IMG/VR virus record: IMGVR_UViG_3300005607_000288 | Coordinates: 1 to 23,326 of that record | Length of the DNA stretch: 23,326 bases | Source of the DNA: a virus | Strand: one strand, 5' to 3' | Part shown: in pieces, positions 1,030 to 23,326 of the stretch | Layout: each line of letters begins with the position of its first letter | Position numbering within the stretch: the stretch's first letter is position 1 | Made by a program: the position numbers and the translations under genes | Notes under the pieces: generated by a model | Databases searched by the model: none | What the model saw: only the letters and a program-made list of their open reading frames with translations | What the model was told of the DNA's origin: nothing

Positions 1030-1569
1030 ATGGTGGTTTCTCTTACCAGAATTGGCGATATTCTCATCATTCGCGCACCCTATCATCCTCTGCTTGTTGC
1101 GGAGATCAAACGCATTCCCGGACGTAAATATAGCGGTCCCCCGCTCAGAGTATGGTCAGTTCCCGCGCAATATGAAGAACAGATACGCGCAATCGTGCGG
1201 AACTATTTTCCCATCGAAGACGAGCCAAATGTCGTTTTTGAAGGTGCGCCCGAACCGCTGGAGGGACCATTTGCGGTTCTCAAACTGGAATTTATCGGCG
1301 AGAATCGCGAAGATCGTTCTGATCGCATCGCTTCAACCATTCGCCATAATCGCGCACGTGGCAAGCATCAGATTCAAGCCATGAGTGAAATTGTACAAGA
1401 GCTGGCCCGGCGCAACTGGACCGATGCAAAAATTGCGCGCGAACTGGGCATGGACCCTGATGAAGTTCTCCGTCTCAAACAGATCAGCGGTCTTGCTGAA
1501 ATGTTCGCCGATCGAGAATTCAGCGAAGCCTGGGAGATTACCGAGTCCGAGCAAGAGAGTACTCAATAA
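1030..1569 (+). CDS. HARP-like domain fused to IbrB/ParB-like C-terminal half
   Basis: A 179-aa protein with two regions. Residues about 6-66 contain APYHP, IKRIPGRK and an R-VWSVPA motif, the pattern of small HARP-like modules (named after the SMARCAL1 HARP domain, which binds branched DNA). The same pattern recurs in the protein at 4024-4548. Residues about 85-170 resemble the distal half of IbrB-like ParB-fold proteins: the TIRHNRARGKH segment (103-113), a helix-turn-helix-like stretch (about 127-151, with MDPDEVLRLKQ), and the ending GLAEMFADREFSEAWE. The N-terminal part of a complete ParB domain is missing, so nuclease or CTPase activity cannot be assumed. The ATG at 1030 follows GAGG and is coupled to the upstream stop. 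A DNA-binding role is inferred; last gene of the operon, followed by a terminator hairpin. Confidence 0.7.
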   Translation: MVVSLTRIGDILIIRAPYHPLLVAEIKRIPGRKYSGPPLRVWSVPAQYEEQIRAIVRNYFPIEDEPNVVFEGAPEPLEGPFAVLKLEFIGENREDRSDRIASTIRHNRARGKHQIQAMSEIVQELARRNWTDAKIARELGMDPDEVLRLKQISGLAEMFADREFSEAWEITESEQESTQ

Positions 1570-1595
1570 ATTGAGCCATACTTTCTCAATAAAAT

Positions 1596-1635
1596 CAGAA
1601 GAGCACTGAGGCAAACAAAAATCAGTGCTCTTCTG
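1596..1635. terminator. Strong 14-bp hairpin terminator, bidirectional
   Basis: A perfect 14-base inverted repeat pairs 1596-1609 (CAGAAGAGCACTGA) with 1622-1635 across a 12-base loop. Read on the minus strand the stem is followed by ATTTTATTGAG, a usable U-tract, so it should end minus-strand transcripts that come through the tRNA-like gene. On the plus strand it sits 27 bases after the stop at 1569 but has only a weak T-run behind it, so termination there is less certain. Confidence 0.75.
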
Positions 1636-1778
1636 GTCATTTCGCAGCCAGTTTCCGCCACACTGGCAAAGGCGCTCGCCCTCAAATAACGGGCCTCTGG
1701 ACGTTTCCGTCGAGCTGGCATACTTGCCCTTCCTGCCTGATCGTTGCAACAACCAGACAGTAACAGCCATACGGGATA
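1636..1778 (-). other. Non-coding stretch rich in hairpins, minus-strand sense
   Basis: No convincing gene is present. On the minus strand, between the tRNA-like element and the terminator, several small stems occur in series: CTGTCTGGT with ATCAGGCAG (1752-1760 with 1733-1741, two G-U pairs), GACG-GAAA-CGTC with a GNRA tetraloop (1711-1700), and GCCAGT with ACTGGC (1667-1662 with 1652-1647). This could be the 3' part of a structured RNA that begins with the tRNA-like element, or chance structure in a spacer. Confidence 0.3.
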
Positions 1779-1892
1779 AACCCTGTACACGAGTCGAACG
1801 TGTGATTTCCGCGAGTCTTGCCCCGGCGCATTCCGACAGAATGTGATGGAGGTTGACCAGCGCGGTATCCTAAGCCTCTAGACGAACAGGGC
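1779..1892 (-). tRNA. tRNA-Glu-like gene with 47-nt anticodon loop (interrupted or pseudo-tRNA)
   Basis: Read on the minus strand, the sequence folds as a tRNA. The 7-bp acceptor pairs GCCCTGT (1892-1886) with ACAGGGT (1786-1780), with one G-U at the end. Positions 8-9 are TC, and the D arm GTCT...AGGAT resembles tRNA-Glu (TCGTCTAGAGG signature). The 5-bp anticodon stem is CCGCG (1865-1861) with CGCGG (1813-1809), the variable loop is AAATC, and the T arm is a perfect ACACG-TTCGACT-CGTGT (1803-1787). CCA is not encoded; position 73 would be T. The anomaly is the anticodon loop: 47 bases (1860-1814) instead of 7, so about 40 are extra. The extra part contains a CATTC/GAATG hairpin. None of the simple 7-base splicings gives a purine at position 37, so a working tRNA is doubtful. 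It may be an interrupted or decayed tRNA, or a tRNA-like RNA with another job. Confidence 0.65.
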
Positions 1893-2092
1893 CTGTCAGC
1901 GTGATCCCCGTTGGACGCTTACCGGGATCTTCCTTTTTCAAGGATGTTTTTTCATGCGCATCATTAAACTATCAACACCTGACATACATGATTCTACCAG
2001 AATTCATACAAGAAAACAAATGGCCCCTGTGCTCTGCCTGATCGGAGAAAGACAATCAGGCGCAAGCGGTGACCGCGTGTACTCTCTTCAAA
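1893..2092. other. Intergenic spacer between holin-like gene and tRNA-like gene
   Basis: No gene is supported here. A 7-bp inverted repeat (GCCTGAT at 2036-2042, ATCAGGC at 2055-2061) forms a hairpin related to the one at 1733-1760. A small stem TCCTT/AAGGA (1931-1944) followed by six T residues (1947-1952) looks like a weak plus-strand terminator. GATCCC (1903-1908) and GGGATC (1924-1929) form another 6-bp inverted repeat. A plus-strand open frame over 1954-2286 runs into the opposite-strand gene and lacks a ribosome site, so I do not call it. Confidence 0.4.
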
Positions 2093-3052: not shown

Positions 3053-3850
3053 CTAGACTTCCCCCTGCAAGGTCTTCAGATCATTTGCCAGATTGTTTGC
3101 CGCGCTCCCCATTGCCGCAATAGCCTGCTGCATGGCTCCAACGGTACTCAGAATCTTCTCAATATCCAGCGTGGGTTTGGGCGCGGGCCATTTACCGCTC
3201 TGGAACCTGAACCCCGCAGGGGGGGCGGGCACCCCCGGCGGCATGATTGCCAGGCAGAAATTCGGTTTGGCCTTGACGATACTCTCTGACCAGGAAATAT
3301 GCACCGGCACATTCTTCCCGGTCTTCGGATCGGTGCAGGCTTGCGGCGCGGCGGGATCATAATAGAGTCCATAGCCGGCATCATCGCTAAATCCGAGCCG
3401 GACAATGCAATGCCCATAATGCAGCCCTGGATGCAGGCTTGTTCCAGTGGCATCATTGATCAAAAGCGATTCATCGGCCACTGACATGAACTGAATAATG
3501 CCCTGACGATTTTGCGCCTCGATCTCCTGCAACAACGGCTCGTAGTCGCCCTGCTGAAGACCAGTATTCACCAGGTCCTGCATATCCACGATTCCCACAT
3601 GATAGTCCGCGAAAAATCGCTGCATGATCTCGTTGGTCACGCCGTTCTGATCCTGTGGCGTATCCGGCCCAACGAATTGTTGATACGCATCATGCTCGAT
3701 CAGATACGGATCGTATTTGTTCGGATAGGCAAAATCCACGCACATTGCGCCGGCGGCTGTCCCGCAGCGAAACAACGAGGGATGGGGCGCTTCGGACGTG
3801 GGCGCAAATTGATTGACGTATCTGGGGAGACGATTGATAACAATATCCAT
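3053..3850 (-). CDS. C39-like cysteine peptidase, candidate endolysin
   Basis: A 265-aa protein. The ATG at 3850 is preferred over 3874 because GAGAGGAAG lies just upstream of it. The N-terminal two thirds have the layout of C39-type papain-fold peptidases: QF and then FRCGTAAGAM around Cys29, LHYGHCIVRLG around His144/His147, and YYDPAAP with Asp165, matching the family's Cys, His and Asp/Asn triad. The last 60 residues are a Pro-rich linker and an Ala/Asn-rich helix. There is no signal peptide, so export would depend on a holin. It is the first gene of a cassette with two membrane proteins and has a candidate promoter of its own, which supports cell-wall peptide cleavage at lysis. It could instead be a virion-associated peptidase; substrate unknown. 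Confidence 0.6.
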   Translation of the reverse strand: MDIVINRLPRYVNQFAPTSEAPHPSLFRCGTAAGAMCVDFAYPNKYDPYLIEHDAYQQFVGPDTPQDQNGVTNEIMQRFFADYHVGIVDMQDLVNTGLQQGDYEPLLQEIEAQNRQGIIQFMSVADESLLINDATGTSLHPGLHYGHCIVRLGFSDDAGYGLYYDPAAPQACTDPKTGKNVPVHISWSESIVKAKPNFCLAIMPPGVPAPPAGFRFQSGKWPAPKPTLDIEKILSTVGAMQQAIAAMGSAANNLANDLKTLQGEV

Positions 3851-4023: not shown

Positions 4024-4548
4024 ATGTTGATAGAGACAAAAGCGAAAGTCTATCGAAACAAAACAGGTTCCCACGCGATTATCAAAGCTCCCTATCATCC
4101 TCAGATGATTGAAAAAATTAAAGTCATTCCCGGTGCGAAATGGCATAATCAGGGAGACCTGAAATTCTGGGCGGTGCCCGCTGACCAGCTAGAAGCTGCC
4201 AGGCAAGCAGTACGTCCGTTCTACCAGATCGAGGGTGAAGAGAGCCAGGTTGAATGGAAAACAGTCAAAATGCGTGTGCGCTTTGCGCAGCATCAAACAC
4301 GCAGTGGAAGTTACAAATGTGGCAAAGCCATCATCATTGACACAACAGATTTGCTGAATGTTCAGCATGGAAATTTCTACGAATGCTCATCTGACTATGA
4401 TGTCCTGGAGGCCGAAGGCGGCTTTATCCAAGGAGATGAGCATGCTGCCTACTGGACAGTCGAGTACATAATGACTGTTAAAATGCGTAAAAATGCCGTC
4501 ATTGAAGCATATGCAGGCACTTATGAAATCATAGAGGAGGAGGCATAA
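4024..4548 (+). CDS. HARP-like domain protein, second copy
   Basis: A 174-aa protein. Residues about 8-70 share the pattern of the protein at 1030-1569: KAPYHP, IKVIPGAKW, a LKFWAVPA motif and an ending of the form FYQIEGE. I read this as a HARP-like module that may bind nucleic acid. The C-terminal 100 residues are different from the other protein: beta-rich, with TVKMRVRFAQ and a later TVKMRKN repeat, no ParB-like segment and no membrane segment. It has a consensus ribosome site and is the first gene behind the promoter with LacI-like operators. The stop codon directly abuts the ATG of the next gene. Function unknown; accessory (moron) status is inferred from its orientation, own promoter and own terminator. 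Confidence 0.65.
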   Translation: MLIETKAKVYRNKTGSHAIIKAPYHPQMIEKIKVIPGAKWHNQGDLKFWAVPADQLEAARQAVRPFYQIEGEESQVEWKTVKMRVRFAQHQTRSGSYKCGKAIIIDTTDLLNVQHGNFYECSSDYDVLEAEGGFIQGDEHAAYWTVEYIMTVKMRKNAVIEAYAGTYEIIEEEA

Positions 4549-4938
4549 ATGGAAGGTTTCTATACCCCCAAGCAACTGAGTGAACTGCTTGGAGGGGGCG
4601 AAAGCACCTATCGCGTTAAAGCGGCGCGTGGAGATTTTAAACATGCATTCAAGCAAGGAAATACCTGGTTTATTCCGCTGCTTGATGTGAGCCAGATTGG
4701 ACGCGGCTATGATAAAGAACTTGCTCCCCCTGCTCTACTTGATCCTGACTATCCTGATGATCCAAGCGATATTGTCCTAGCGCAAAATAGCGACAAACGC
4801 TATGGTATCTATATCGACTCACACTGGTACGGAGCAAGGCAAGCCCTCTCAATACTCGCCTATCTGGAAGAACATCGAGCATGGCTTGAAGAAAAAGCGA
4901 ACGAAAATAATGCGAATGAAAATAACGCAGCGCAATAA
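4549..4938 (+). CDS. HTH_17/excisionase-like DNA-binding protein
   Basis: A 129-aa protein. Residues about 4-48 (FYTPKQLSELLGG, then STYRVKAARGDF and WFIPLLDV) follow the layout of helix_turn_helix_17/excisionase-type domains: helix, turn, recognition helix, then a short beta hairpin ending in a W-x-IP motif. The middle is acidic with several Asp-Pro pairs, and the C-terminus ends in a low-complexity Asn/Glu tail (NENNANENNAAQ). The ATG directly follows the stop of the HARP-like gene and has GAGGAGGAGG upstream, so it is strongly coupled. It may regulate the phage or recruit the HARP-like protein to DNA; both ideas are inference. A true excisionase is less likely because no integrase lies nearby. 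Confidence 0.65.
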   Translation: MEGFYTPKQLSELLGGGESTYRVKAARGDFKHAFKQGNTWFIPLLDVSQIGRGYDKELAPPALLDPDYPDDPSDIVLAQNSDKRYGIYIDSHWYGARQALSILAYLEEHRAWLEEKANENNANENNAAQ

Positions 4939-6118: not shown

Positions 6119-6736
6119 CTACACGTAAGAAAGCAAATAATCAAAGGTCACGGCATTGCTGTTTGTTTTGGTGTACTGAAACAAACTATGCGTCATCAGC
6201 GTGCCGCTCCCGAGCGTTGAGGTTGCTCCATTGCCAAACAGACCCGCATTGGTAATAGAGCCATTCGCCTGCGTCGTGCCAGCAAAGACAGAGATATCCT
6301 GCTGCGTGCCGCTCACGCTGGCAGTCGAGGGAACTGCACGGAAGTATTCCCCGGCCACGCTGGTATCAGCAGACGTAACCTGTGTGATTCCAATATTGCC
6401 TACCGCAAAATATTGCGCAAAGCCAATACTGTTGCCCGATTGCGAGCCGACATAATTGAGGACCTGCGTGATCCCCCCGCTCACCAGAATATTCGGGCTT
6501 TCTGCCACTGTATACCGCGCTTTTTCCCGATCGGACATACGCGCCGGCCTGATGATTCGGCCTCGACTATCGCGCTCGCAGAGCCACCACATGCGCCATT
6601 CGTCCTCGGTCGCAAATGGCACTTCCCGCACGCGAATCAGCCCGCAAATATGCAGCCGATCATGAAGCAAGGCAGGGGGGGCAATCAGCCGCGCAACGCT
6701 CGCTCGAAGAGCGTCCAGGCGTGACACTCGGTACAT
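6119..6736 (-). CDS. Tail fibre/tip protein, copy B
   Basis: A 205-aa protein, a paralogue of the one at 19273-19872. Shared elements in order are: an N-terminal part around EDEWRMWWLCERDSRGRIIRPARMSD (compare EEEFRYWYCPVTAPDGTILQEARLSD), then ESPNIL versus AENILTN, a VGNIGITQVTSADTSVAG segment (compare VGNVAITGVTRADTSVAG), and near the end GTLMTHSLFQYTK (compare GALMTHAMFSYSK). The family is not named with confidence; gene order directly after the hub protein suggests a tail-tip or receptor-binding role. The N-terminus is longer and more basic than in copy A. A run of seven C residues codes for part of IAPPALL, a possible slippage site. A ribosome site (AGAGGAAG) precedes the ATG. Confidence 0.65.
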   Translation of the reverse strand: MYRVSRLDALRASVARLIAPPALLHDRLHICGLIRVREVPFATEDEWRMWWLCERDSRGRIIRPARMSDREKARYTVAESPNILVSGGITQVLNYVGSQSGNSIGFAQYFAVGNIGITQVTSADTSVAGEYFRAVPSTASVSGTQQDISVFAGTTQANGSITNAGLFGNGATSTLGSGTLMTHSLFQYTKTNSNAVTFDYLLSYV

Positions 6737-6751
6737 CTTCCATCTTCCTCT

Positions 6752-8857
6752 CTAGCTGTACACTGCAAAGCCATAGATCGCACTGCCATAAGTATAGGGA
6801 CCGGCTGATGGCGCGCCATGAGCATTCACCGCTACCTGATCATTCACATGCAGCTCATCAAAAAGCGCCGCGTCAATGCTGGCCACCACCGCCACATTGG
6901 CCGTCGTCGGTGTTTTTTTGACCGCTTTGTGAACGTTTCGGATATGATCAAGAATCGTTGGATTGTAGACGCCTGCGGTATAATTCCAGTGATACACTCC
7001 GCCGCCTTGCAGATCGGCATTGACGGTCTGCACAACAAATGGCGCTCTGGACAACCCTTCACTCTGGCAGGTAAACAGAATGAGTGAGCCCACCGGCAAA
7101 TAGATTCCAAGCGATGAGAGCGTCAAAATCACTCGCGGTTCCGCATAATCTTGCAACTCGGTCAGACCCCGATGCTTCGCTGCTGTCGTACTGGTAATAT
7201 TGCTATCGGAGACCAGGCCCCAAAATTGGGCCTGGCTTTCAGCAATCGCATCGGCAGCAATCACATCGCTGATTACCTGGTCTTCATAGGTGTAGGACAC
7301 CACTACATTGTTGGTGCCTGAGGCCGGCGCGGTTGCAAACTGGATCGTTTGTTTTTGTTTGTTAATCAACGCGCGAAACGTACTGGACGGGCCAAATTTC
7401 GCATTATCCACGCCATCCACGCCTGTCCTCACGCTTGATCCGCCGACCGTCACGCTATGCACATTGTCCGGCGGCTCCGAGAGATTGAAAACGGTCGTTG
7501 AGCCATTCCCGCTGAACGTATCGGTAATCGCTGCTGCTTTCTGTTTGGTGCCTTTCACTCGACAATAATTCACCGGATTGGTGCTGTCATATTCAATCGA
7601 GAACGCATCATAGGGAAAACTGTTCACATTATCTGGCGTATCTGACAATTCAACGACTGTGCCGACGAAGCTGGGCGGCACGTACCAGAAATAATAATAG
7701 GGATCGACATAGAACAGGCTGCCAGATTGCGCAGAAACGCTATTCGCCACCTCGCGCATCGTCGCATCGTTGAACGAGATCGAATCCACGATCACACCGG
7801 GCACCAGCGTACTCGGCGGACTGAAAAGATTCTGCTGCCCGGTTGCCAGTTGAGCAATCAGTGAATTTTGGACAGGAAGCTGAGCAAACGCCGTAGAGAG
7901 AATAGTCGTATCCTGTGTATTCGTGAAGGAAGCTGAAATAAGTCCTGCGGTTTCCAGCAATTTTGATGAGCTGGCACATTGCACTGCCGTATGCCGCTGC
8001 TTGCCGACATAGCTATTGATATGATCCTCCACATATCCTGCGAACAGGCGGCATTTGCGGCTGGTCGTGCCATCGGGCAAAAGCACACTGTTGACCTGCG
8101 CGAAATTGCAATCAGGCGTCGGATAGGATATGCCTTTATCTGTGAACCACATGGGTTCAAATTGCACAGCTCCAAACGTGACCGATCCACTGTTCGTTGC
8201 ACTGATAATGATGCCGCCAAAGGCGATTTGCGCCGACACTGCGCCGACGGGCGCAACACCAGCAATCGCGATGCGATTCTGACCGAGCAGGGGGGTACGC
8301 TGGTCGATCACGACGGGCGTCAGACTATTTCCATTGCTATCAAAAAAAGTAAGTTCCAGCAACGTTTGAAATCCAGCAATAGTACCTGAGCCAGTCATAT
8401 ATATGGAAAGCATATACTGCTGGCCAGCAACGATATAGCCCGGGTTGGTTATTTGCTGCTGCAACGCGTACTGAGCATTGGTATTATTATTGACGGTAAA
8501 AACGATCGCTGCTTGCGGATAACTCCAAACGGTTGATGGCAGCGTGCCTACCTGCGTCCAGTTTGCTGGCGCATGTCCGAATCCATCATTAGTGAACGAA
8601 GGATTGCGCGCAAAGTTCCAGGCCGGAATTGTTGGTATCGTGCCAATTGCGGGAGCATTTTCATCCCAAATGACGACCGGCTGGAAATTCTGAACAGCAA
8701 GTTGCTGATTGATATCATCCAGCACAAACGAGCAACTTGACGCCGGATCATTGAGACTGGCTGAAAAAGTGATACCGCCTGCTTGCGCGCTTCCATTCTC
8801 TTCCGAATCAGGCGCAATGAAATTCGTTACATCGCGCATGCCAACAGTGATATACAT
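6752..8857 (-). CDS. Tail hub/tip protein with carbohydrate-binding-like domain, copy B
   Basis: A 701-aa protein that starts three bases after the tape measure stop, in the usual place of the distal tail or hub protein. Residues about 10-70 open a tail-associated domain. Residues about 75-240 look like an inserted carbohydrate-binding module (ARNPSFTNDGF and a later ANWTQ, then a beta-sandwich ending VQFEPMWF). The following part (NSYVGKQRHTAVQCASSSKLLETA to SNITSTT) matches the hub region of the 19891-22335 protein, with FTN, DTTI and FYVDPYYYFWYVPP-type motifs aligned. Unlike copy A there is no C-terminal LamG domain; the end is a compact beta region of about 70 residues. Likely role: tail-tip hub that carries fibres and binds surface glycans. 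Confidence 0.7.
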   Translation of the reverse strand: MYITVGMRDVTNFIAPDSEENGSAQAGGITFSASLNDPASSCSFVLDDINQQLAVQNFQPVVIWDENAPAIGTIPTIPAWNFARNPSFTNDGFGHAPANWTQVGTLPSTVWSYPQAAIVFTVNNNTNAQYALQQQITNPGYIVAGQQYMLSIYMTGSGTIAGFQTLLELTFFDSNGNSLTPVVIDQRTPLLGQNRIAIAGVAPVGAVSAQIAFGGIIISATNSGSVTFGAVQFEPMWFTDKGISYPTPDCNFAQVNSVLLPDGTTSRKCRLFAGYVEDHINSYVGKQRHTAVQCASSSKLLETAGLISASFTNTQDTTILSTAFAQLPVQNSLIAQLATGQQNLFSPPSTLVPGVIVDSISFNDATMREVANSVSAQSGSLFYVDPYYYFWYVPPSFVGTVVELSDTPDNVNSFPYDAFSIEYDSTNPVNYCRVKGTKQKAAAITDTFSGNGSTTVFNLSEPPDNVHSVTVGGSSVRTGVDGVDNAKFGPSSTFRALINKQKQTIQFATAPASGTNNVVVSYTYEDQVISDVIAADAIAESQAQFWGLVSDSNITSTTAAKHRGLTELQDYAEPRVILTLSSLGIYLPVGSLILFTCQSEGLSRAPFVVQTVNADLQGGGVYHWNYTAGVYNPTILDHIRNVHKAVKKTPTTANVAVVASIDAALFDELHVNDQVAVNAHGAPSAGPYTYGSAIYGFAVYS

Positions 8858-8860
8858 AGC

Positions 8861-11035
8861 TCAGCTATCCCTCATTCCACGTGCTGGATTGCTCATGAGT
8901 CCAGAACTGCGAAATTTGCGATTGAGTCGCTCTTCCACTGCACGCGCAATCGCTTCAGGACTCATTCCAGCCGCTGCATTAATCACAAACGACGTATTGC
9001 CATAGTGATTGCCGCTCACCGCGCTGCTATAATTATTCCCGGCAGGGGGGCGGCCATAGGGTACGCTCGCACCCGTTCTCTGCGGTGTGGGAGCCATGCC
9101 AGAGAGCACGGTTGCTGTCTGCTGCACGGCTGCTTGCAGCTTTGGATGCCCGGCGAGAATGCCCTGAGTCATGAGCGACATCATATCTGGCATCCAGGTA
9201 TCAGCGTCAGCAAGCGGCCCTTTTTCCGGCACGGAAAACCCTAAGAAATGCTTGATCGTCGAGCCAATATTGCCAACGGCATTCCCGATGCCACTGAGCA
9301 TATTTTTAATGCCATTGATGAATCCCTGGATCATATCTTTCCCCCATTGGAGCGCCTGCCCCGGGAGATTTTTGAAAAAAGTGACGATGGTGGTAATGAT
9401 TTCCTGCGCTTTCTTCCCGGCAGCATTTTTGAATTCAATCAGTTTATTGATCACATTCAAGACCATTTGCGCAAGAAATAATTTGATTTTGTCCGGTAAT
9501 TCTCTAAAAAAGGTGATAATGGCAGCGATACGCTGTTGCACCTGATTTTTCCAGTTCTCAAAACGCGCAACAATCGCCAGAATAATTGCATGAATGAGCG
9601 TGCCAAGCGCCTGGAAAAATGCTCCGATTCTGGCGAATTGCTGCTGAAACCAGGTGCCCAGTTCGTGCAGTCGATCGCCAATCCACTGCGAGACCTGCTT
9701 CCAATGCGTCCAGAGCAGAATAATGGCCGCCACCACCAGCGTCACAACCAGGATGATCAGCAAAAGCGGCCACGTGGCCGCCAGCGTCGCGATGGCCGCT
9801 GATCCTGCTGCGATCGCCCAGCTCACAAATGCCGGAATAAGCACGCCCAGCGCCACGCCGGCAAACGCGATCAATGCGCCTTTCAAAAGCGCCATGAATA
9901 CTTCATTTTGCGCGGCGGCTCTGGCAAAATTGATCAGCCACAGAACGACAGGCGCGACAAATGAAACGATCTTTGTCAGGATCGGCAGCAGTTTCTGGCC
10001 AATATCGATAAAGAGAACCTGCACTGCCGCCCCGGCGCGATCAAGCGCCTGCTTGAAGCCGCTCTGCGTGATAGCCCAGGCATCCGCCGTTTTCCGGCTC
10101 ATTGCCTGCCGATCAGAAAGCGTCTTCAGATTTGCATTGTAATTCTGCGTGTGCGAGGCGAGCGCCTGAATCGCCTGTGCCGCCTGCTTTGTCACGCCGG
10201 TAATATGGACATGCTTTGCATTGGCCTGCTCCAGCACGCTATTGAGATAGCGCACTTTGTCGCCAAAGGACATCGCATTGAATTTCGTCTCATCAAATGC
10301 GATGCCATTCTTATGCAGGCTCTTTGTCACCGTTCCGATGTTGCCATACATCACGCTGAGCAATTGCGTGTAATCGGTCGTGGCCTGCCCGGCGGAAATG
10401 CCGGTAGACGTGAGCGTGGACCAGGCGGCATTCATGGTCTCAAGCGAAACATGAAATTGCTTGGAGGAAGAAGCGGCTTTGGTAATCGTCGAGGCGTATT
10501 GCTGGAACGTCGCTTTGCCAAGCGTCACCGTTTCCAGCATCTCACCGTTCACACGCGTGGCATCTTTGGCGCTGATATTGAACGTTCGGAGAACATTGGT
10601 AAGCGCATTTGACGTGACGCTGGCATCCGTCATACCAATCTTGGCATCCTCGGTCGCCAGCGTCAGCACCCGAATGGCATCCGCGCCACTGTAGGACGCT
10701 GAAAGGACATTATAGAGGCCCTGCGCAAGCTGATTGGGAGCCACGCCCGCATCGACGGCAAGCTGCTTGACCTGCGTATCGTAGTATTGCATCTGCTGCG
10801 CATTCGATCCAGTCAGCGCCTGGACCATATTCATGCTCTGCTGATACTGCGATGCCAGTTGCACAGCCTGCGTGCCGATTGCGATCGCTGCAAGCGAGAG
10901 GCCGCCAAACACCTTGAGCAATGGGCCAGCATCGCCTGCGAGAGTGACAAGCGTCGAGCCGAATTGCTTCAGGCCATTCGATGCCATGTCCTGTACGTGC
11001 AGAACAACTTTTAACGAAAGATCGTTACTGCCCAC
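8861..11035 (-). CDS. Phage tail tape measure protein, TP901 type, copy B
   Basis: A 724-aa protein that sets tail length and occupies the tube lumen. Residues about 60-280 have the TP901 core pattern (LAVDAGVAPNQLAQGLYNVL, then TEDAKIGMTDASVTSNALTNVL and STGISAGQATTDYTQLLSVM). Residues about 385-447 are a long hydrophobic stretch, as is common in these proteins for membrane passage of DNA. After amphipathic helices the C-terminus holds LGFSVPEKGPLADADTWMPDMM, closely matching the partial protein at the right edge. The start is a GTG at 11035, with GGGAG 11 bases upstream; no better in-frame start is visible. It follows the chaperone pair, the canonical order. At about 1.5 angstroms per residue a tail near 100-110 nm would be expected. 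Confidence 0.85.
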   Translation of the reverse strand: MGSNDLSLKVVLHVQDMASNGLKQFGSTLVTLAGDAGPLLKVFGGLSLAAIAIGTQAVQLASQYQQSMNMVQALTGSNAQQMQYYDTQVKQLAVDAGVAPNQLAQGLYNVLSASYSGADAIRVLTLATEDAKIGMTDASVTSNALTNVLRTFNISAKDATRVNGEMLETVTLGKATFQQYASTITKAASSSKQFHVSLETMNAAWSTLTSTGISAGQATTDYTQLLSVMYGNIGTVTKSLHKNGIAFDETKFNAMSFGDKVRYLNSVLEQANAKHVHITGVTKQAAQAIQALASHTQNYNANLKTLSDRQAMSRKTADAWAITQSGFKQALDRAGAAVQVLFIDIGQKLLPILTKIVSFVAPVVLWLINFARAAAQNEVFMALLKGALIAFAGVALGVLIPAFVSWAIAAGSAAIATLAATWPLLLIILVVTLVVAAIILLWTHWKQVSQWIGDRLHELGTWFQQQFARIGAFFQALGTLIHAIILAIVARFENWKNQVQQRIAAIITFFRELPDKIKLFLAQMVLNVINKLIEFKNAAGKKAQEIITTIVTFFKNLPGQALQWGKDMIQGFINGIKNMLSGIGNAVGNIGSTIKHFLGFSVPEKGPLADADTWMPDMMSLMTQGILAGHPKLQAAVQQTATVLSGMAPTPQRTGASVPYGRPPAGNNYSSAVSGNHYGNTSFVINAAAGMSPEAIARAVEERLNRKFRSSGLMSNPARGMRDS

Positions 11036-16653: not shown

Positions 16654-17685
16654 TCACTTTCCGTACACATTCGGCGTAAATGTCCAGGTGGGCGATGCGG
16701 TCCCCCCAACCACCCAGCGCAGCCGCCCGGTTCCTCCAAGCGACTGATTGTACGCAAGGCCCGGCCCGATGGAGGTACTGACCGTATTACTTGCAACCGA
16801 GAGCACCGCACTCTGCCAGAGGGGATAGTAGATGCCATCCGCACCTTTGCGCTCCCAGAAAAATTGCAGGGTGGGATTCGTCCCTGATTGCGCCGTCGTG
16901 GTGATATCGATCGCAATTTCATGCAATTTGGAGACATCCAGATCCCCGCTATTCCCGCTTCCTACCCCGGTCTGGGCGCTGCTAAAAAGCGTGGTGGTAG
17001 AAAGTCCTACGAGCACTCGCCCAATGCTGTCGAGGGCCAGTTCCACGGCTCCGTTGTAGATCGCGGTGCGCAAATTCCGGTTCGCTGCCGATTCCACCTG
17101 CAAGGCTTGCAGATTCGTCCCATCGGTAGCCCCCAGCTGGGTTGATGAACCGGGGGCGGCGCTCCCAGTTGCACCGACTGAAGCGTTATTAAACGAACCG
17201 GTGCCGGCGTTCGCGGTCACGGTCCCGGATACCGGCTGCACTACCGCCGAATTATCCACTTTGAGCGCCCCGCCGGCGCTAATGGATGCCTTATTCGCTC
17301 CGCCGCTATCCGCCAGTTCCACGCTGCCAATCAGCGCCGATCCCGCCACGATCCCCACATTGCCGATCGTGTTCGTGCCCGCCGGCAAGGAAGGCAAGCC
17401 TCCGATCGTGACGCTTGCCGTATTGGCCTTGATCTGCTTGAGCTGGCCGATCACGCTGTTTGCGTTGGCTGCATCGGTCGAGGTTCCCTGGGTCACGTCA
17501 TTGCCATCAGCAACATACATCGCAACAGGCGCGCTCACATTGCCATTAGAATCAGCACTGGACGCCGGCCCGCCCTGCATCGCCGTAAAATTGCCGCCAG
17601 CGGTGCCGGGAACATAGACGGCGGTCGCTGGAAATTGATTCGTCCCGATGGTCGTTGTCGAAAGCGGGGTGGTGCCAAAACTCAT
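16654..17685 (-). CDS. Phage structural protein with beta-helix-like N-terminus
   Basis: A 343-aa protein with GAAGGAGGCC before the ATG at 17685. The N-terminal half is Gly/Ala/Asn/Thr-rich with hexapeptide-like strands (PAGTNTIGNVGIVAGSALIG and KVDNSAVVQPVSGTVTANAG), resembling the repetitive shaft regions of phage surface proteins. The C-terminal part (about 225-343) is a beta sandwich with LHEIAIDITTTAQSG and TLQFFWERKGADGIYYPLW, a pattern of jelly-roll domains. The ATG overlaps the stop of the small gene before it. It is most likely a fibre, collar or decoration protein. No close family is named. Confidence 0.6.
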   Translation of the reverse strand: MSFGTTPLSTTTIGTNQFPATAVYVPGTAGGNFTAMQGGPASSADSNGNVSAPVAMYVADGNDVTQGTSTDAANANSVIGQLKQIKANTASVTIGGLPSLPAGTNTIGNVGIVAGSALIGSVELADSGGANKASISAGGALKVDNSAVVQPVSGTVTANAGTGSFNNASVGATGSAAPGSSTQLGATDGTNLQALQVESAANRNLRTAIYNGAVELALDSIGRVLVGLSTTTLFSSAQTGVGSGNSGDLDVSKLHEIAIDITTTAQSGTNPTLQFFWERKGADGIYYPLWQSAVLSVASNTVSTSIGPGLAYNQSLGGTGRLRWVVGGTASPTWTFTPNVYGK

Positions 17686-17818: not shown

Positions 17819-18868
17819 TCAGAGTGTTTTCAGATCAGCCAGGGCCCGGGCGATGGGCGCGGTAATCGCCTCGGCGATGGCGTGGATATCGGCTTCGACC
17901 TGGCTGGTATCCACTGCCGGGGGAACTGGTGGCGCGAATCCCGGCACATGCTTGAGAAAGTCCGCGTCTGTCAGATGGCAGAGCGCACACGCCCCGGTCC
18001 CTGGCTGATGATCCTTCAGGTGGGCCGGATCGTAGAAAATGCCCGCGCGTTCAAACACCTGCAGCACGACCCGGTTCCCCTGGACTGACAGGGAAATTTC
18101 ATCGGTGAGGGGCAGACCAACAATCGGCAGGCTGTTGCCATCCATTGAGAGCGCGGCGTAGAAGTCTTTGATGCCAAATTGTACAACCCGTCCGGTCTTC
18201 TTACAGGTCCAGTGATCGGCATCAGAGGCCGTAAACCAGAGACCAAAATCGGCGGCATGCTCCGTATAGCGTTGCATTGTTCCTCCCTGGAACCATTGTC
18301 CAACGTCGCTCGTTGTCGAGCGGTCGTAGTCTACAGAACGTCCGTCAAGCCTGACGCCATTCTGATACTGCTGAAGATGCGCACGCGGCTCCCATTGGCC
18401 GGCAGACCACGCATACGTTTGCCATCCCCAGGTGATCGCGCCGGCGTCAAAGAGCGCCTTGATGACCCGGTACGAGCCATAGGCCCCGGTGCGCGCGAGA
18501 CCGAGCACGGAGGCCACCCCGTGAAAGTAGTCGATCACGGCTCCCATCTGCGCGTCGCTCGCGTCAAAATCGACGCTGAAGTAAATCGGGCGATCCGCCG
18601 GTCCTCCACAGGCGGCGTGTTGCGCGGCGGCAATCTGGGCGTCGATCTTGCCGGAGGCGGCCCCCTCCAGTGCCCGGTTGGCATACCATTCATAGTTACT
18701 CACCAGGGCGATCCCGGCCTCGGTGAGCGCCTTTGCTTCCTCCGCCGTGAGCAACTTGACTCTGGTCAGGTCATTGACCTCGGAGAGATACCGGCACACA
18801 AACGTCACCCCCGCCGCCTTGAGGGTCGCGATCGGCGGCCCGGTCACATAATCCAGTCCAAATGCCAT
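17819..18868 (-). CDS. DUF1906 glycoside-hydrolase-like lysin with C-terminal binding region
   Basis: A 349-aa protein. Residues about 3-197 match the DUF1906/GH25-like fold: FGLDYV with Asp6, VTFVCRYLSE, an ALTEAGIALVSNYEWY strand, PIYFSVDFDAS with Asp100/Asp102, GAYGSYRVIKALFDAGAITWGWQTYAWS and VDYDRS near 179-184. Enzymes of this type are proposed to cleave the peptidoglycan sugar chain. Residues about 200-300 contain GLPLTDE (251-257) and QVFERAGIFYDP (270-281), an LGFP-like pattern often found in Chloroflexota cell-surface proteins, which may bind cell wall. The sequence ACALCHL (294-299) contains CxxCH, probably by chance. AAGGAG precedes the ATG. It follows a holin-like gene, so lysis is the likely role. 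Confidence 0.75.
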   Translation of the reverse strand: MAFGLDYVTGPPIATLKAAGVTFVCRYLSEVNDLTRVKLLTAEEAKALTEAGIALVSNYEWYANRALEGAASGKIDAQIAAAQHAACGGPADRPIYFSVDFDASDAQMGAVIDYFHGVASVLGLARTGAYGSYRVIKALFDAGAITWGWQTYAWSAGQWEPRAHLQQYQNGVRLDGRSVDYDRSTTSDVGQWFQGGTMQRYTEHAADFGLWFTASDADHWTCKKTGRVVQFGIKDFYAALSMDGNSLPIVGLPLTDEISLSVQGNRVVLQVFERAGIFYDPAHLKDHQPGTGACALCHLTDADFLKHVPGFAPPVPPAVDTSQVEADIHAIAEAITAPIARALADLKTL

Positions 18869-19272: not shown

Positions 19273-19872
19273 TCAGTTGCTCAGGACAAAGACATAGTTG
19301 ACGGCGATCGCCTGCGACCCTTTGGAATAGGAAAACATCGCGTGCGTCATGAGCGCCCCGGTCCCGGCGGTCGTGGTGGCGGCCTGGCTCGACGCCGTTT
19401 TGTATCCGTACACCCCGATATTCGTCCAACTCCCAACGGCGTCGGTGCTCGCGTAGTTGGTCACGACGGTCGTGCTAAAGCCGGTCGTGCTAAACGAGGT
19501 GGGCGCTTTGCGTGCGCCGGTGGCAAAGCCATCGCCGGCAACGCTGGTATCCGCGCGCGTTACCCCGGTGATGGCCACGTTGCCCACCGAAAGAATCTGG
19601 AAAAACGGGTTCATACTCCCCTGCCCGGCCACACTCATATTGGCCAGCAAGAGCGTGATGCCGGTATTGGTGAGAATGTTTTCCGCCTGCATCCGCCCGT
19701 CGTCAAGCGGGATCTGCCAGCGGCGCTTTACCGCGTCTGAGAGCCGTGCCTCCTGCAAAATGGTGCCGTCCGGGGCCGTCACCGGGCAGTACCAGTACCG
19801 GAACTCCTCCTCGGTCCACTCGGCCGGGATCTGGTGCAGGGTAATGATTCCGCGAATGCTCAGGGGTTCCAT
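19273..19872 (-). CDS. Tail fibre/tip protein, copy A
   Basis: A 199-aa protein, a paralogue of 6119-6736. Both contain a short N-terminal beta section with a Glu-rich loop and Trp/Tyr cluster (EEEFRYWYCPVTAPDG), an ARLSDAVKRRW helix, an ENILTN turn, the DTSVAG motif, and an ALMTHAMFSYSKG end. The shared motifs are spread along the whole chain, so this is duplication of the gene rather than of one domain. It follows the hub protein by 18 bases and is followed by lysis genes, as in copy B. A role in cell binding is inferred from position. GGAGGTCAC precedes the ATG. Confidence 0.65.
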   Translation of the reverse strand: MEPLSIRGIITLHQIPAEWTEEEFRYWYCPVTAPDGTILQEARLSDAVKRRWQIPLDDGRMQAENILTNTGITLLLANMSVAGQGSMNPFFQILSVGNVAITGVTRADTSVAGDGFATGARKAPTSFSTTGFSTTVVTNYASTDAVGSWTNIGVYGYKTASSQAATTTAGTGALMTHAMFSYSKGSQAIAVNYVFVLSN

Positions 19873-19890
19873 GTGACCTCCGTTTCTCCC

Positions 19891-22335
19891 TCAGGGCCGC
19901 CCGGCGGCATAGTGCGTGGCAATCTGCGTACTGCTGAGCGCAAACGTGTAGAAGGCGACCTCGTCGATCGTTCCTGAAAAGAAGCTATTGGAATACGATC
20001 CGGGCGCATAGGCTGCAATGCAACACAGCGTTTGCGTCAGCGACAACGTGAAGGCCGTTGGACCGGCAACCAGCGATCCATTCACATACAGTCGAGTGTT
20101 TGTTCCATCATAGGTGCCGACGACATGATAGATCGTATTGGTACTCAGATTGCCGCTCAAGATATCGCCGCTATCGGTCGAGCACACCACCTGGAAGGTC
20201 GTGCCATTGGAGGCAAAGTTCAGCACCCCGAACTTCTGATTGCCAGAGGCGCCCCCCCATCCCATGAGGGTCTGGTGACTCCCGCTTGGCGGAACGCTTG
20301 CGACCTTGAACCAGCATTCCAGACTCCAGGGTTGGGACCCGGTCGGAACCATACTGGTAGGAAGCGTGATTTGCTGGCTCGACGCCGCCGCAAAGGTCAT
20401 GGCAAAATCACTGGTATCGGGCGCGGCGCTATCGGTCAGCAGCGTTGCCACGCCAAGCGTCGGGCTATTGACGATCGTCCCGATATGTCCATTGCCACTC
20501 CAATCATCGGCGACCGTGCCTTCCAGGTTGCTGAGGCGGTAGTAGGCAATCGGGCCATCGGCCTGAATCGTCTGGACATAGCTGCTGGTGACACTTGCCG
20601 TTGCCTCTGTATCGGTCATGCCGATGGATTCGAGCAGCGCCAGGGTAGTCGTGCCAATGGGGGGGGCGCTGACGTTGCGCTGGGTCGTGCGGAAAATGCG
20701 ACTCATGATCGCGGTCGCCGCCCGGTTGACGGCCCCCAGGTCGGCCTGGTACTCCCACTGGTCGGTGAGCGTTTCGCTGGTCCCGATCCACCGGGCCGTG
20801 ACCTGCTGAATGAGCAGCGTCGTCTGGGAGAGGCCATCCGTGTTACTCGTCACCTGGATCGATTCGCCGGCCAGCAATTCCACGTTGGTAGACAGATGCA
20901 CAATCGTGCGCGCGGTGTCGTACTGGATGAGTTCGGCCATCGCCCGCTGCGTGCAGTCCGCATTCGAGAGCAGCGTTGAATCATTGACTTTGCGCAGAAA
21001 CATCTTGCCAGGCGTGAAGGTATACCCGCTGGTAATCCCGTACTGAGCGGTGGTGGAGGGGTCAATCACCTCGGCGCTAAAAGTGGTGGAGCCGGACGTG
21101 CCGCCGATGACCAGAATCGCCGCCCCCGGTTGGGTCAAATCCACCTCGCGTGAGAAGTGGTAGGCCGGAAAGCTTGTGACCAGATCAGGCGTGCTGGAAT
21201 TGTCGCAGATCAGGCTGATCGGCATAGCGAAATAGCCGGGGGGCGCGTAGATGAAGTTCCAGTAATAATCAATGGTCCAGTAAAAGCCGGAGAGGCCGCA
21301 CAGCCCATCAAAGAGGGTGCGCAGGTCATCCCAGTTTGCTTGCAGGCTCGTCACATTTGAGACGCCTTTCACAATACTCCCTGTCGTGCAAAAGCCATTG
21401 AGATAGGTCGTCAGCAGGCTGGTAATAATCGTTGCGTCGCTCTGGTTGGTAAACGAGTCATTGGCCAGAATGAGTCCGGCCAGCCAGGCGTAGCCCGCTG
21501 CTCCGATCAGCACCTCGCGTTTGTTGCCATGATAGTTCTGATAGGTGACGTGCGTGACAAAGCCGGCAAACTTGCGGTACTGGCGAATAAAAAGGCCATC
21601 TGGTAATTGTTGACAGTTGGTTTGTGCGGGTCCGCACCAGGGCGTCGGGTAGGAAAGCGTTGGAAACCAGAGTGGCTCCATCTGCGCCTGGGTAAAGGTG
21701 ATCGATCCGCTATTGGTACTGCTTGACAGCTTCAGACCAAACTCTACCTGAAAGTAGGCAGCAGTAGCCGGCGCGGTTGCGATCAGGCTGTAGCGCGTAT
21801 TGGAGGTTGAAGCCGGAACCGGGCCATCGGCATCGCCGAAGCTAGAAAGACCATTCCCATTGGCGTCAAGCCAGAAGCCGGAGAGTGAGACGCCGATATT
21901 GACCGGGGAGGTCGCCTGTCCATACACCGAGAAAACATAGGATTGTCCACCAACGACCGTGTAAAGTCCTGGATTGGCGCTATTCGCATAGGTCCCCTGA
22001 ATCATGGGGAATCCGCGCGGAGTGGCGGCGTTATTCGCGGTGATAGTGACACCACCCCCGGTCTGTTGTGAAAGCGTCATGCCAGGCGTCGCGTTGATGA
22101 ACCAGTTGGTGGTGTATGGATTCATCTGTGGATTGAGCAGCAGATTCACCGTAGGATTTGGCACAACCTGCTCGTCAAGCACCAGGAGTTCCTGCATTGC
22201 CTGCGGAGCAAGAGAGGAGGTATTGTCCTCCACCACCACGGTACAGGTAGGCACCGGATCGGTCATCGCTCGCGTGATCTTCACGCTCGTTGCATCCAGG
22301 GTGCTGATATATTGCCCGCCAAGAATGATTCGCAT
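19891..22335 (-). CDS. Tail hub/tip protein with carbohydrate-binding-like and LamG domains, copy A
   Basis: An 814-aa protein with AGGAAGGAAACA before the ATG at 22335. It starts 20 bases after the tape measure stop. Residues about 1-60 and 240-590 match the hub region of the 6752-8857 protein (KREVLIGAAGYAWLAGLI versus KQRHTAVQCASSSKLLETAG; FTNQSDATIITSLL versus FTNTQDTTILSTAF). Residues about 60-235 form an inserted beta sandwich similar to a carbohydrate-binding module. Residues about 598-812 are a LamG/concanavalin-like domain (DDWSGNGHIGTI, then WSLECWFKVASVP, YHVVGTYDG, RLYVNGSLV and FFSGTIDEVAFYTFAL). That C-terminal domain is absent from copy B and probably gives glycan binding at the tail tip. 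A run of eight C residues codes for part of SAPPIG. Confidence 0.75.
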   Translation of the reverse strand: MRIILGGQYISTLDATSVKITRAMTDPVPTCTVVVEDNTSSLAPQAMQELLVLDEQVVPNPTVNLLLNPQMNPYTTNWFINATPGMTLSQQTGGGVTITANNAATPRGFPMIQGTYANSANPGLYTVVGGQSYVFSVYGQATSPVNIGVSLSGFWLDANGNGLSSFGDADGPVPASTSNTRYSLIATAPATAAYFQVEFGLKLSSSTNSGSITFTQAQMEPLWFPTLSYPTPWCGPAQTNCQQLPDGLFIRQYRKFAGFVTHVTYQNYHGNKREVLIGAAGYAWLAGLILANDSFTNQSDATIITSLLTTYLNGFCTTGSIVKGVSNVTSLQANWDDLRTLFDGLCGLSGFYWTIDYYWNFIYAPPGYFAMPISLICDNSSTPDLVTSFPAYHFSREVDLTQPGAAILVIGGTSGSTTFSAEVIDPSTTAQYGITSGYTFTPGKMFLRKVNDSTLLSNADCTQRAMAELIQYDTARTIVHLSTNVELLAGESIQVTSNTDGLSQTTLLIQQVTARWIGTSETLTDQWEYQADLGAVNRAATAIMSRIFRTTQRNVSAPPIGTTTLALLESIGMTDTEATASVTSSYVQTIQADGPIAYYRLSNLEGTVADDWSGNGHIGTIVNSPTLGVATLLTDSAAPDTSDFAMTFAAASSQQITLPTSMVPTGSQPWSLECWFKVASVPPSGSHQTLMGWGGASGNQKFGVLNFASNGTTFQVVCSTDSGDILSGNLSTNTIYHVVGTYDGTNTRLYVNGSLVAGPTAFTLSLTQTLCCIAAYAPGSYSNSFFSGTIDEVAFYTFALSSTQIATHYAAGRP

Positions 22336-22355
22336 CCTGTTTCCTTCCTTTCGAC

Positions 22356-23326
22356 CTAAAAGACCAGTCCGCTGTTGTAGCCAGCCGTCTGGCCGCGAAA
22401 TCGCTGGCCGAGTTCCCGCTCTAAAAGGTCTACCAACCGGCTGACCTCGTCTTGCGAGCGGGCCATCGTCGAGAGGTTCAGCGTCCAGTTATGGATGATC
22501 GTCGTCGAGGCGCCAGCCCCTCCAGGCGGAAGTGGCCCGATCGGGGCGGGCGCAAGCGGAGTGAGCGCCGCATTGAACGCAGCCTGGAGTTTTGGGGACC
22601 CGGCAAGAATGCCGCGTGCGAAGAGATCCATCATATCCGGCATCCACTCATCGGCAGTGGAAAGGGGGCCGGCCACCGGCACGCTGAAGCCCAGGTGATC
22701 CTTGATCCACTGCCCGATGCCATTAATGATGTCCTGCACATGCTTCCACCCGGAAAGAATCCCATTGCCCAGATTGGTTATCAGATCGCTTCCCCATTTG
22801 AGCGCCGCCTGCGCCAGATCGTTGAACTTCTGGATAAGCCAGAGGTTCAACCCCATCCAGATCAGCTTGATCCGATCCGGCAGCGTCCAGAACCAGTCGG
22901 CGATGGTGCGCCCGAGAGTGAAGAGCCAATCGGAAAACAACTGGAATTTTTCGTGTAGCCAGTTGAAGGCCCCCCCAAATGCGCCCGGAATCCACTGGAC
23001 AAAGCCAGAGAGCAAGGACATGAAGTTGCCAAAGGCGGGCATCCCGTCGTTGTTGACCCAATCGACCAGGTTCCCCAGCCAGCCGAGCGCGGTCTGTATC
23101 CCGCCAATCAGGGGGGGGCCGAACGTCTGGGCCAGCCAGAGGACGCCCTGCACGATGTGCAGGATGATTGGCAAAATGAACTCGGCAGTAAAGATCCAGA
23201 ATTTCAGGAAGATTTCGATGACCTTGCCAATCTCCTGCCACAAGCCTTTCCAGGTCCCCGTGAAGTTGATCACGCTGCCCGATCCCTTGCCCCCGCTGCC
23301 AAAATCGGCAATGATCGTATCCTCCA
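22356..23326 (-). CDS. Tail tape measure protein C-terminal part, copy A (cut by window edge)
   Basis: The frame is open to the right edge: 17 further codons (from GAGGATACG on) precede the internal GTG at 23273, so the gene starts outside the window and 323 residues are visible. The visible part has Trp-rich amphipathic helices and hydrophobic stretches (WIFTAEFILPIILHIVQGVL), then LGFSVPVAGPLSTADEWMPDMMDL followed by ARGILAGSPKLQAAF. This matches LGFSVPEKGPLADADTWMPDMM and QGILAGHPKLQAAV near the end of the 8861-11035 tape measure. The last segment (DEVSRLVDLLERELGQRF) is also similar. It is followed by a hub gene in the usual order. No TP901 core is visible because of the truncation. Confidence 0.75.
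   Translation of the reverse strand, partial: EDTIIADFGSGGKGSGSVINFTGTWKGLWQEIGKVIEIFLKFWIFTAEFILPIILHIVQGVLWLAQTFGPPLIGGIQTALGWLGNLVDWVNNDGMPAFGNFMSLLSGFVQWIPGAFGGAFNWLHEKFQLFSDWLFTLGRTIADWFWTLPDRIKLIWMGLNLWLIQKFNDLAQAALKWGSDLITNLGNGILSGWKHVQDIINGIGQWIKDHLGFSVPVAGPLSTADEWMPDMMDLFARGILAGSPKLQAAFNAALTPLAPAPIGPLPPGGAGASTTIIHNWTLNLSTMARSQDEVSRLVDLLERELGQRFRGQTAGYNSGLVF

What the first reader, a model, noticed from the sequence alone, without database searches (positions are those of the whole stretch)
1779..1892. tRNA-Glu-like cloverleaf with a 47-nt anticodon loop
All other parts are canonical: a 7-bp acceptor with one G-U, a tRNA-Glu-like D arm, a perfect 5-bp anticodon stem, a five-base variable loop, and a perfect T arm with TTCGACT loop. 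Only the anticodon loop carries about 40 extra bases, with an internal CATTC/GAATG hairpin. Bacterial tRNA introns are normally self-splicing group I introns of 200 bases or more, which this cannot be. The intact stems on both sides argue against random decay. Options are a recent insertion, a very small processed intron, or a tRNA mimic with another function such as a decoy for anticodon nucleases (speculative).
Basis: partly seen in the sequence, partly recalled or inferred. Interest (0 to 1): 0.75.

Follow-up and report, generated by a model that had tools for sequence, protein, structure and literature searches.

The report
Phage tRNA-Glu body, foreign anticodon loop
A virus of an unknown bacterium carries a well-preserved copy of a transfer-RNA gene whose decoding loop has been replaced by 47 unrelated bases, so it probably cannot read the genetic code; it is most likely a broken or idle relic, although a kept, non-decoding tRNA-shaped RNA is not excluded.

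Summary
On the minus strand (1892-1779) a tRNA-Glu-type body has all 21 stem pairs and its tertiary-contact bases intact, but a 47-nt anticodon loop. Intron-aware ARAGORN finds this element and nothing else in the window, and finds none in 200 shuffled windows. It is not a coherent intron-containing tRNA: every single excision leaves Thr (GGU) or Ser (GGA/AGA) anticodons on a Glu-type body, with a pyrimidine at position 37. The insert's fold is not better than chance. Nothing similar was found in related phage records, in IMG/VR pattern scans, or in 396 Actinomycetota genomes. Best reading: a tRNA-Glu-derived gene whose loop was replaced in one event, now non-decoding. Intact stems do not exclude recent inactivation (below about 10% neutral divergence).

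The search for relatives exposed something separate and stronger. Jumbo and other phages carry tRNAs with 39-52-nt inserts inside the anticodon stem (mostly between positions 28 and 29). Removing the insert restores a perfect stem and, in several cases, a sensible anticodon. The inserts share a covarying hairpin followed by a YNRC(A/G)GCA motif. The window element fails the membership tests for that family.

The parts
1779..1892 (-). tRNA-Glu-type cloverleaf with a 47-nt anticodon loop (whole element)
   Evidence: Sequence; ARAGORN -i finds 1893..1778 on the minus strand; 0 hits in 200 shuffles
1886..1892 (-). acceptor stem 5' strand GCCCTGT
   Evidence: Pairs with 1786-1780 ACAGGGT, 7 of 7 with G1-U72
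1867..1883 (-). D arm GTCT-AGAGGCTTA-GGAT, Glu-type (U11-A24, U13-G22; G15 opposite C48)
   Evidence: Sequence; same D-arm type as tRNA-Glu(UUC) in L112
1861..1865 (-). anticodon stem 5' strand CCGCG
   Evidence: 5 Watson-Crick pairs with 1813-1809 CGCGG; 5 WC pairs plus U33 arise in 0.3% of shuffles of this stretch
1814..1860 (-). 47-nt expanded anticodon loop (about 40 nt extra)
   Evidence: No cognate splice solution; fold z = -1.5, 84 of 1000 shuffles fold at least as well; no match to intron model R1
1829..1843 (-). internal hairpin CATTC-TGTCG-GAATG
   Evidence: Present in the minimum-free-energy fold; not significant by itself
1809..1813 (-). anticodon stem 3' strand CGCGG
   Evidence: See 1861-1865
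1787..1803 (-). T arm ACACG-TTCGACT-CGTGT
1779..1786 (-). acceptor stem 3' strand ACAGGGT and U73; no encoded CCA
   Evidence: Sequence
1596..1635 (-). perfect 14-bp hairpin downstream, followed by ATTTTATT on the minus strand: probable end of the minus-strand transcript

Best explanation
It is the body of a phage-carried tRNA-Glu-type gene whose 7-nt anticodon loop was replaced in one event (insertion with loss of the original loop bases) by about 47 nt of unrelated DNA. It can still fold as a tRNA-shaped RNA (shown only as a secondary-structure prediction) but has no usable anticodon, so it does not decode (inferred). It lies between two converging gene sets, at the end of the minus-strand late operon behind a small gene of unknown function. 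It is probably co-transcribed with that operon (inferred) and now idle: a recently disabled tRNA gene rather than an intron-containing one.
For: The body is significant and tRNA-Glu-like. Against an actinobacterial tRNA-Glu that shares its G1-U72 pair (L112), 6 of 21 stem pairs differ on both sides and none is broken, so the body diverged while it was under pairing constraint. No single excision gives a Glu anticodon or a purine at 37. The insert fold is ordinary. No other tRNA is in the window. No relative of the element was found in 11 related phage records, and none of the IMG/VR pattern hits has a similar insert. 0 of 396 Actinomycetota genomes match the lengthened tRNA-Glu pattern. Intact stems are compatible with up to about 9% neutral divergence.
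Against: All 21 pairs and the bases of the standard tertiary contacts are intact, which a maintained RNA would also show. No decay is actually visible. No intact sister gene is known, so the replacement event is inferred rather than seen.
Confidence: 0.55

Rival explanations
1. A maintained, non-decoding tRNA-like RNA: the cloverleaf is kept because it recruits tRNA enzymes (RNase P or RNase Z cutting at the end of the late operon, or binding of a tRNA-targeting host factor), and the long loop is a tolerated or functional extension.
For: Intact cloverleaf and tertiary positions; the cloverleaf-constrained fold is within about 1.3 kcal/mol of the minimum; position just upstream of a strongly folded stretch (z = -4.46) and a 14-bp terminator-like hairpin.
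Against: The insert shows no significant structure; no conserved relative; T4's stable RNAs C and D, a known phage case of small stable RNAs beside tRNAs, do not share the cloverleaf.
Confidence: 0.25
2. A tRNA with a small processed intron at the canonical 37/38 position, giving tRNA-Thr(GGU) after removal of 40 nt.
For: ARAGORN's parse; perfect anticodon stem and U33; short introns in phage tRNAs have been reported (Lak phages, PMC6784885) and intron-like stem inserts were found here.
Against: Pyrimidine at 37 in every parse and a Thr/Ser anticodon on a Glu-type body; no match to the phage insert model; the MFE fold lacks an archaeal-type bulge-helix-bulge.
Confidence: 0.1
3. A recombination scar: an integrating element used the anticodon loop as its attachment core (common in mycobacteriophages, PMC10865867) and left about 40 nt behind, or the element is a variant attachment site of this phage.
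For: Anticodon loops are frequent attP/attB cores in mycobacteriophages (PMC10865867); the endolysin's relatives found in genomes are all actinomycete and the body shares G1-U72 with an actinomycete tRNA-Glu.
Against: No integrase is evident among the window's ORFs (not searched exhaustively), though the record may be a fragment; both halves of a tRNA are present, whereas an attP normally holds only the 3' part.
Confidence: 0.1

Closest known systems
Bacterial tRNA-Glu (e.g. L112, Catenulispora, UUC)
   Same: Acceptor beginning GCCC with G1-U72, D arm GTCTAGAGGCYTAGGA, canonical T arm
   Different: 47-nt loop instead of 7; no Glu anticodon; 5-nt variable loop AAATC instead of TAAC; U73 instead of A73
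Phage tRNAs with short inserts in the anticodon stem (GAP32, CBB, BF/pEa_SNUABM, Kaldavass and others; family assembled here)
   Same: Phage-encoded tRNA body with 39-52 extra nt in the anticodon arm; similar total length (111-127 nt)
   Different: There the insert lies mostly between positions 28 and 29, its removal restores a perfect stem and a usable anticodon, and it has a conserved hairpin plus YNRC(A/G)GCA; none of this holds in the window
Lak megaphage tRNA introns (Devoto et al. 2019, PMC6784885)
   Same: Phage tRNA genes with unexplained inserts
   Different: Conserved across phages and with intron-less counterparts; sequences not compared here
T4 stable RNAs C and D
   Same: Small stable phage RNAs beside tRNA genes; RNA C has a T-arm-like 3' end
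   Different: No D arm or full cloverleaf
Group I introns in bacterial tRNA anticodon loops
   Same: Located in the anticodon loop
   Different: At least about 200 nt with a catalytic core; here about 40 nt and no Rfam match

Membership tests
Functional bacterial tRNA | Complete cloverleaf with acceptor, D, anticodon and T stems | tested here: met
Functional bacterial tRNA | 7-nt anticodon loop with U33, purine 37 and an anticodon matching the body | tested here: not met
   47-nt loop; no excision gives a Glu anticodon or a purine at 37
Phage anticodon-stem tRNA inserts (family described here) | Excision of one 39-52-nt segment inside the anticodon stem gives 5 WC pairs, U33, R37 | tested here: not met
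   true for 11 of 13 family members tested, 0.1-0.5% of shuffles
Phage anticodon-stem tRNA inserts (family described here) | Hairpin followed by YNRC(A/G)GCA, scored by covariance model R1 | tested here: not met
   No match at 1778-1893 with filters off at E up to 10
Group I intron in a tRNA | Catalytic core, about 200 nt or more | tested here: not met
   About 40 nt; no Rfam hit
Archaeal-type BHB tRNA intron | Two 3-nt bulges on opposite strands separated by 4 bp at the exon-intron junctions | tested here: not met
   The MFE fold has a 2-nt bulge, 4 bp, then a symmetric 3x3 internal loop; judged by inspection of one predicted fold
tmRNA | tRNA-like domain with mRNA-like tag region | tested here: not met
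   No Rfam hit; no tmRNA found by ARAGORN
Phage tRNA / attachment site of tRNA-dependent lysogeny | Integrase gene and attP near the tRNA; isotype matching the disrupted host tRNA | tested here: inconclusive
   No integrase seen among the ORFs, but the record may be incomplete and the host is unknown

The most novel reading that the evidence does not exclude
The element is a maintained non-decoding tRNA-like RNA that uses an intact cloverleaf with a giant anticodon loop, for example as a processing or stability module at the end of a phage late operon or as bait for a tRNA-targeting host defence.
Probability: 0.2. Interest if true: 0.75.

Novelty: new variant of a known kind. Interest (0 to 1): 0.42.

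Why it matters
Taken alone, it is one unusual tRNA-derived element of uncertain function in an unclassified phage. Its value is that it led to a test separating two things that gene finders mix up: tRNA bodies with a broken loop, and phage tRNAs carrying short inserts that look like real introns. The second group appears in several cultured phages (GAP32, CBB, BF, pEa_SNUABM, Kaldavass). I found no description of it in the held library beyond the Lak-phage tRNA introns, and it can be tested directly in those phages: if the inserts are removed, bacteria or their phages must have a tRNA-splicing route for introns far too small to splice themselves.

Tried and rejected
Group I intron, tmRNA and known Rfam RNAs: no match. 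Archaeal-type BHB intron: the predicted fold does not fit. Chance cloverleaf: rejected, 0 of 200 shuffled windows. Evolved structure in the insert: not significant. Membership in the phage stem-insert family: rejected twice; the similar total length is not evidence, because the search pattern selected for it. Finding the same element in relatives: the closest relative (contig 3300048899_000081, tail proteins mostly 75-82% identical) ends before this region and has no tRNA-like element; other scans returned nothing near. Host assignment: only hints (actinomycete endolysin relatives, G1-U72), no conclusion. Many of the 36 pattern hits were truncated or overlapping tRNAs and were set aside.

Full report
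Observation. It reads GCCCTGT-TC-GTCT-AGAGGCTTA-GGAT-A-CCGCG-[47 nt]-CGCGG-AAATC-ACACG-TTCGACT-CGTGT-ACAGGGT-T (1892->1779). All 21 pairs of the four stems form, counting G1-U72, G10-U25 and U13-G22. The bases for the usual tertiary contacts are present (U8-A14, G15-C48, G18/G19 with the T loop, A58); this is from the sequence and general tRNA knowledge. ARAGORN without introns finds no tRNA in the window. With introns it finds exactly this one, as tRNA-Thr(GGU) with a 40-nt intron, score 106.3. The same search on 200 dinucleotide-preserving shuffles of the window (4.7 Mb) finds nothing. With 40 nt removed the body scores about 113.7; ordinary tRNAs in other loci score 107-127. Rfam's tRNA model does not see it, even at E up to 5.

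Setting. The window is an IMG/VR virus record of 23,326 bases. Minus-strand genes encode tail and lysis functions (tape measure 8861-11035, endolysin 17819-18868). Plus-strand genes at 199-1569 converge on the region. The element lies about 200 nt downstream of the minus-strand gene 2093-2713 (function unknown), followed by 194 nt with unusually strong structure (z = -4.46) that ends in a perfect 14-bp hairpin at 1596-1635. No sigma-70-like promoter lies nearby. Co-transcription with the late operon is inferred, not shown.

Source of the body. The D arm GTCTAGAGGCTTAGGAT is of tRNA-Glu type. An actinobacterial tRNA-Glu in a held locus (L112) has the same G1-U72 pair, an acceptor beginning GCCC, and nearly the same D arm. 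Compared with it, six stem pairs differ on both sides and none is broken. So the body diverged while pairing mattered. This does not say whether that was before or after the loop changed.

Is it an intron? I enumerated every single excision that leaves a 5-bp stem (at least 4 pairs), a 7-nt loop with U33 and a 4-5-nt variable loop. The window allows only loops CTGGTCA, CTGGTCT, CTGGACT and CTAGACT: anticodons GGU, GGA or AGA on a Glu-type body, always with a pyrimidine at 37. Neither CUUUCAC nor CUCUCAC (Glu loops) can be recovered as a prefix plus a suffix. So a simple insertion into a Glu loop is not enough; the loop was replaced, or further changed. Folding with the cloverleaf fixed gives the insert z = -1.5 (84 of 1000 shuffles as good). 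There is no sign of an evolved structure, and the predicted fold is not a bulge-helix-bulge.

Is it decaying? A simulation shows that neutral change of 5% per site leaves all 21 pairs intact in 23% of cases, 9% in 7%, and 12% in 2.5%. The intact stems bound the age of any inactivation; they do not exclude it.

Relatives. The nearest phage relative (tail proteins mostly 75-82% identical, contig 3300048899_000081) ends before this region, and ARAGORN finds no tRNA or intron-tRNA in its 19.4 kb. Eleven related records lack any similar DNA (one chance match of 19 bases). Pattern scans of IMG/VR for lengthened tRNA-Glu genes returned 36 loci, none with this insert. The same pattern is absent from 396 Actinomycetota genomes.

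A separate finding. Many of those 36 loci are jumbo or other tRNA-rich phages; cultured ones include Cronobacter GAP32, Pectobacterium CBB, Serratia BF, Erwinia pEa_SNUABM and Kaldavass. They carry tRNA genes of 111-127 nt, annotated as 'tRNA-OTHER', as odd isotypes, or not at all. Excising one 39-52-nt segment, mostly between positions 28 and 29, restores five pairs, U33 and a purine at 37 in 11 of 13 members tested; shuffles do so in 0.1-0.5%. Two further members gave no solution at all (L003_9916, L128_4671), and several gave four pairs only. Restored anticodons include Glu UUC on a Glu body (GAP32), and Lys UUU, Asp GUC, Ile GAU and Tyr GUA on others whose body identity was not established; some Glu-type bodies give other anticodons (L114, L117, L119, L015). 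The inserts share a covarying hairpin (0 of 500 shuffles reach the covariation score) followed by YNRC(A/G)GCA. A covariance model finds further copies but nothing at the window element. Lak phages were reported to have tRNA introns of unknown nature (PMC6784885); I could not compare sequences. Splicing itself is not shown: a permanent side arm on the anticodon stem would look the same.

Verdict. The most likely identity is a tRNA-Glu-derived phage gene with a replaced anticodon loop, non-decoding and probably idle (0.55). A maintained tRNA-like RNA is the main rival (0.25). The intron reading is weak (0.1).

Noticed in passing
L110:8389-8503, 10084-10210, 16872-16995 (Cronobacter phage GAP32); L079:2994-3108, 4695-4819 (CBB); L081:2994-3110, 3440-3566, 4642-4766 (pEa_SNUABM_12); L080:4953-5070; L003, L018, L114, L117, L128 and others: Phage tRNA genes with 39-52-nt inserts inside the anticodon stem (mostly 28/29), sharing a covarying hairpin plus YNRC(A/G)GCA; excision restores perfect stems and usable anticodons. 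Looks like an undescribed class of short phage tRNA introns or side arms.
   Followed up: partly
window 6119-11035 and 19273-23273 (minus strand): Two paralogous tail modules in one 23-kb record (small tail protein, 701/814-aa tail protein at about 35% identity, tape measure), in the same order.
   Followed up: no
window 1585-1778 (minus strand): Stretch downstream of the element folds far better than shuffles (z = -4.46), with a 14-bp perfect hairpin at 1596-1635 and a 12-bp hairpin near 1730-1763.
   Followed up: partly
window 1652-1675, 1704-1727, 1806-1829: Three 24-nt copies (67-71% identical) spaced 52 and 102 nt apart; the last lies in the expanded loop and the anticodon stem. May be chance.
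   Followed up: no
L119 c1843-1967 and c1973-2097: Adjacent phage tRNAs with 50-52-nt inserts that splice at 28/29 or 29/30 but lack the CAGCA motif: possibly a second insert type.
   Followed up: no
L114 c3067-3353 and L125 c2085-2332: Permuted tmRNA genes (Rfam RF04321) in phage records.
   Followed up: no
L078 1054-1172 (T4 rnaD): T4 stable RNA D contains a hairpin TGATG...CATCA followed directly by CAGCA, like the motif of the phage tRNA inserts; model R1 does not score it.
   Followed up: no
window 1030-1569 and 4024-4548 (plus strand): Two genes share an N-terminal segment (APYHP...IPG.K......W.VPA); the first has a ParB-like C-terminal part.
   Followed up: no
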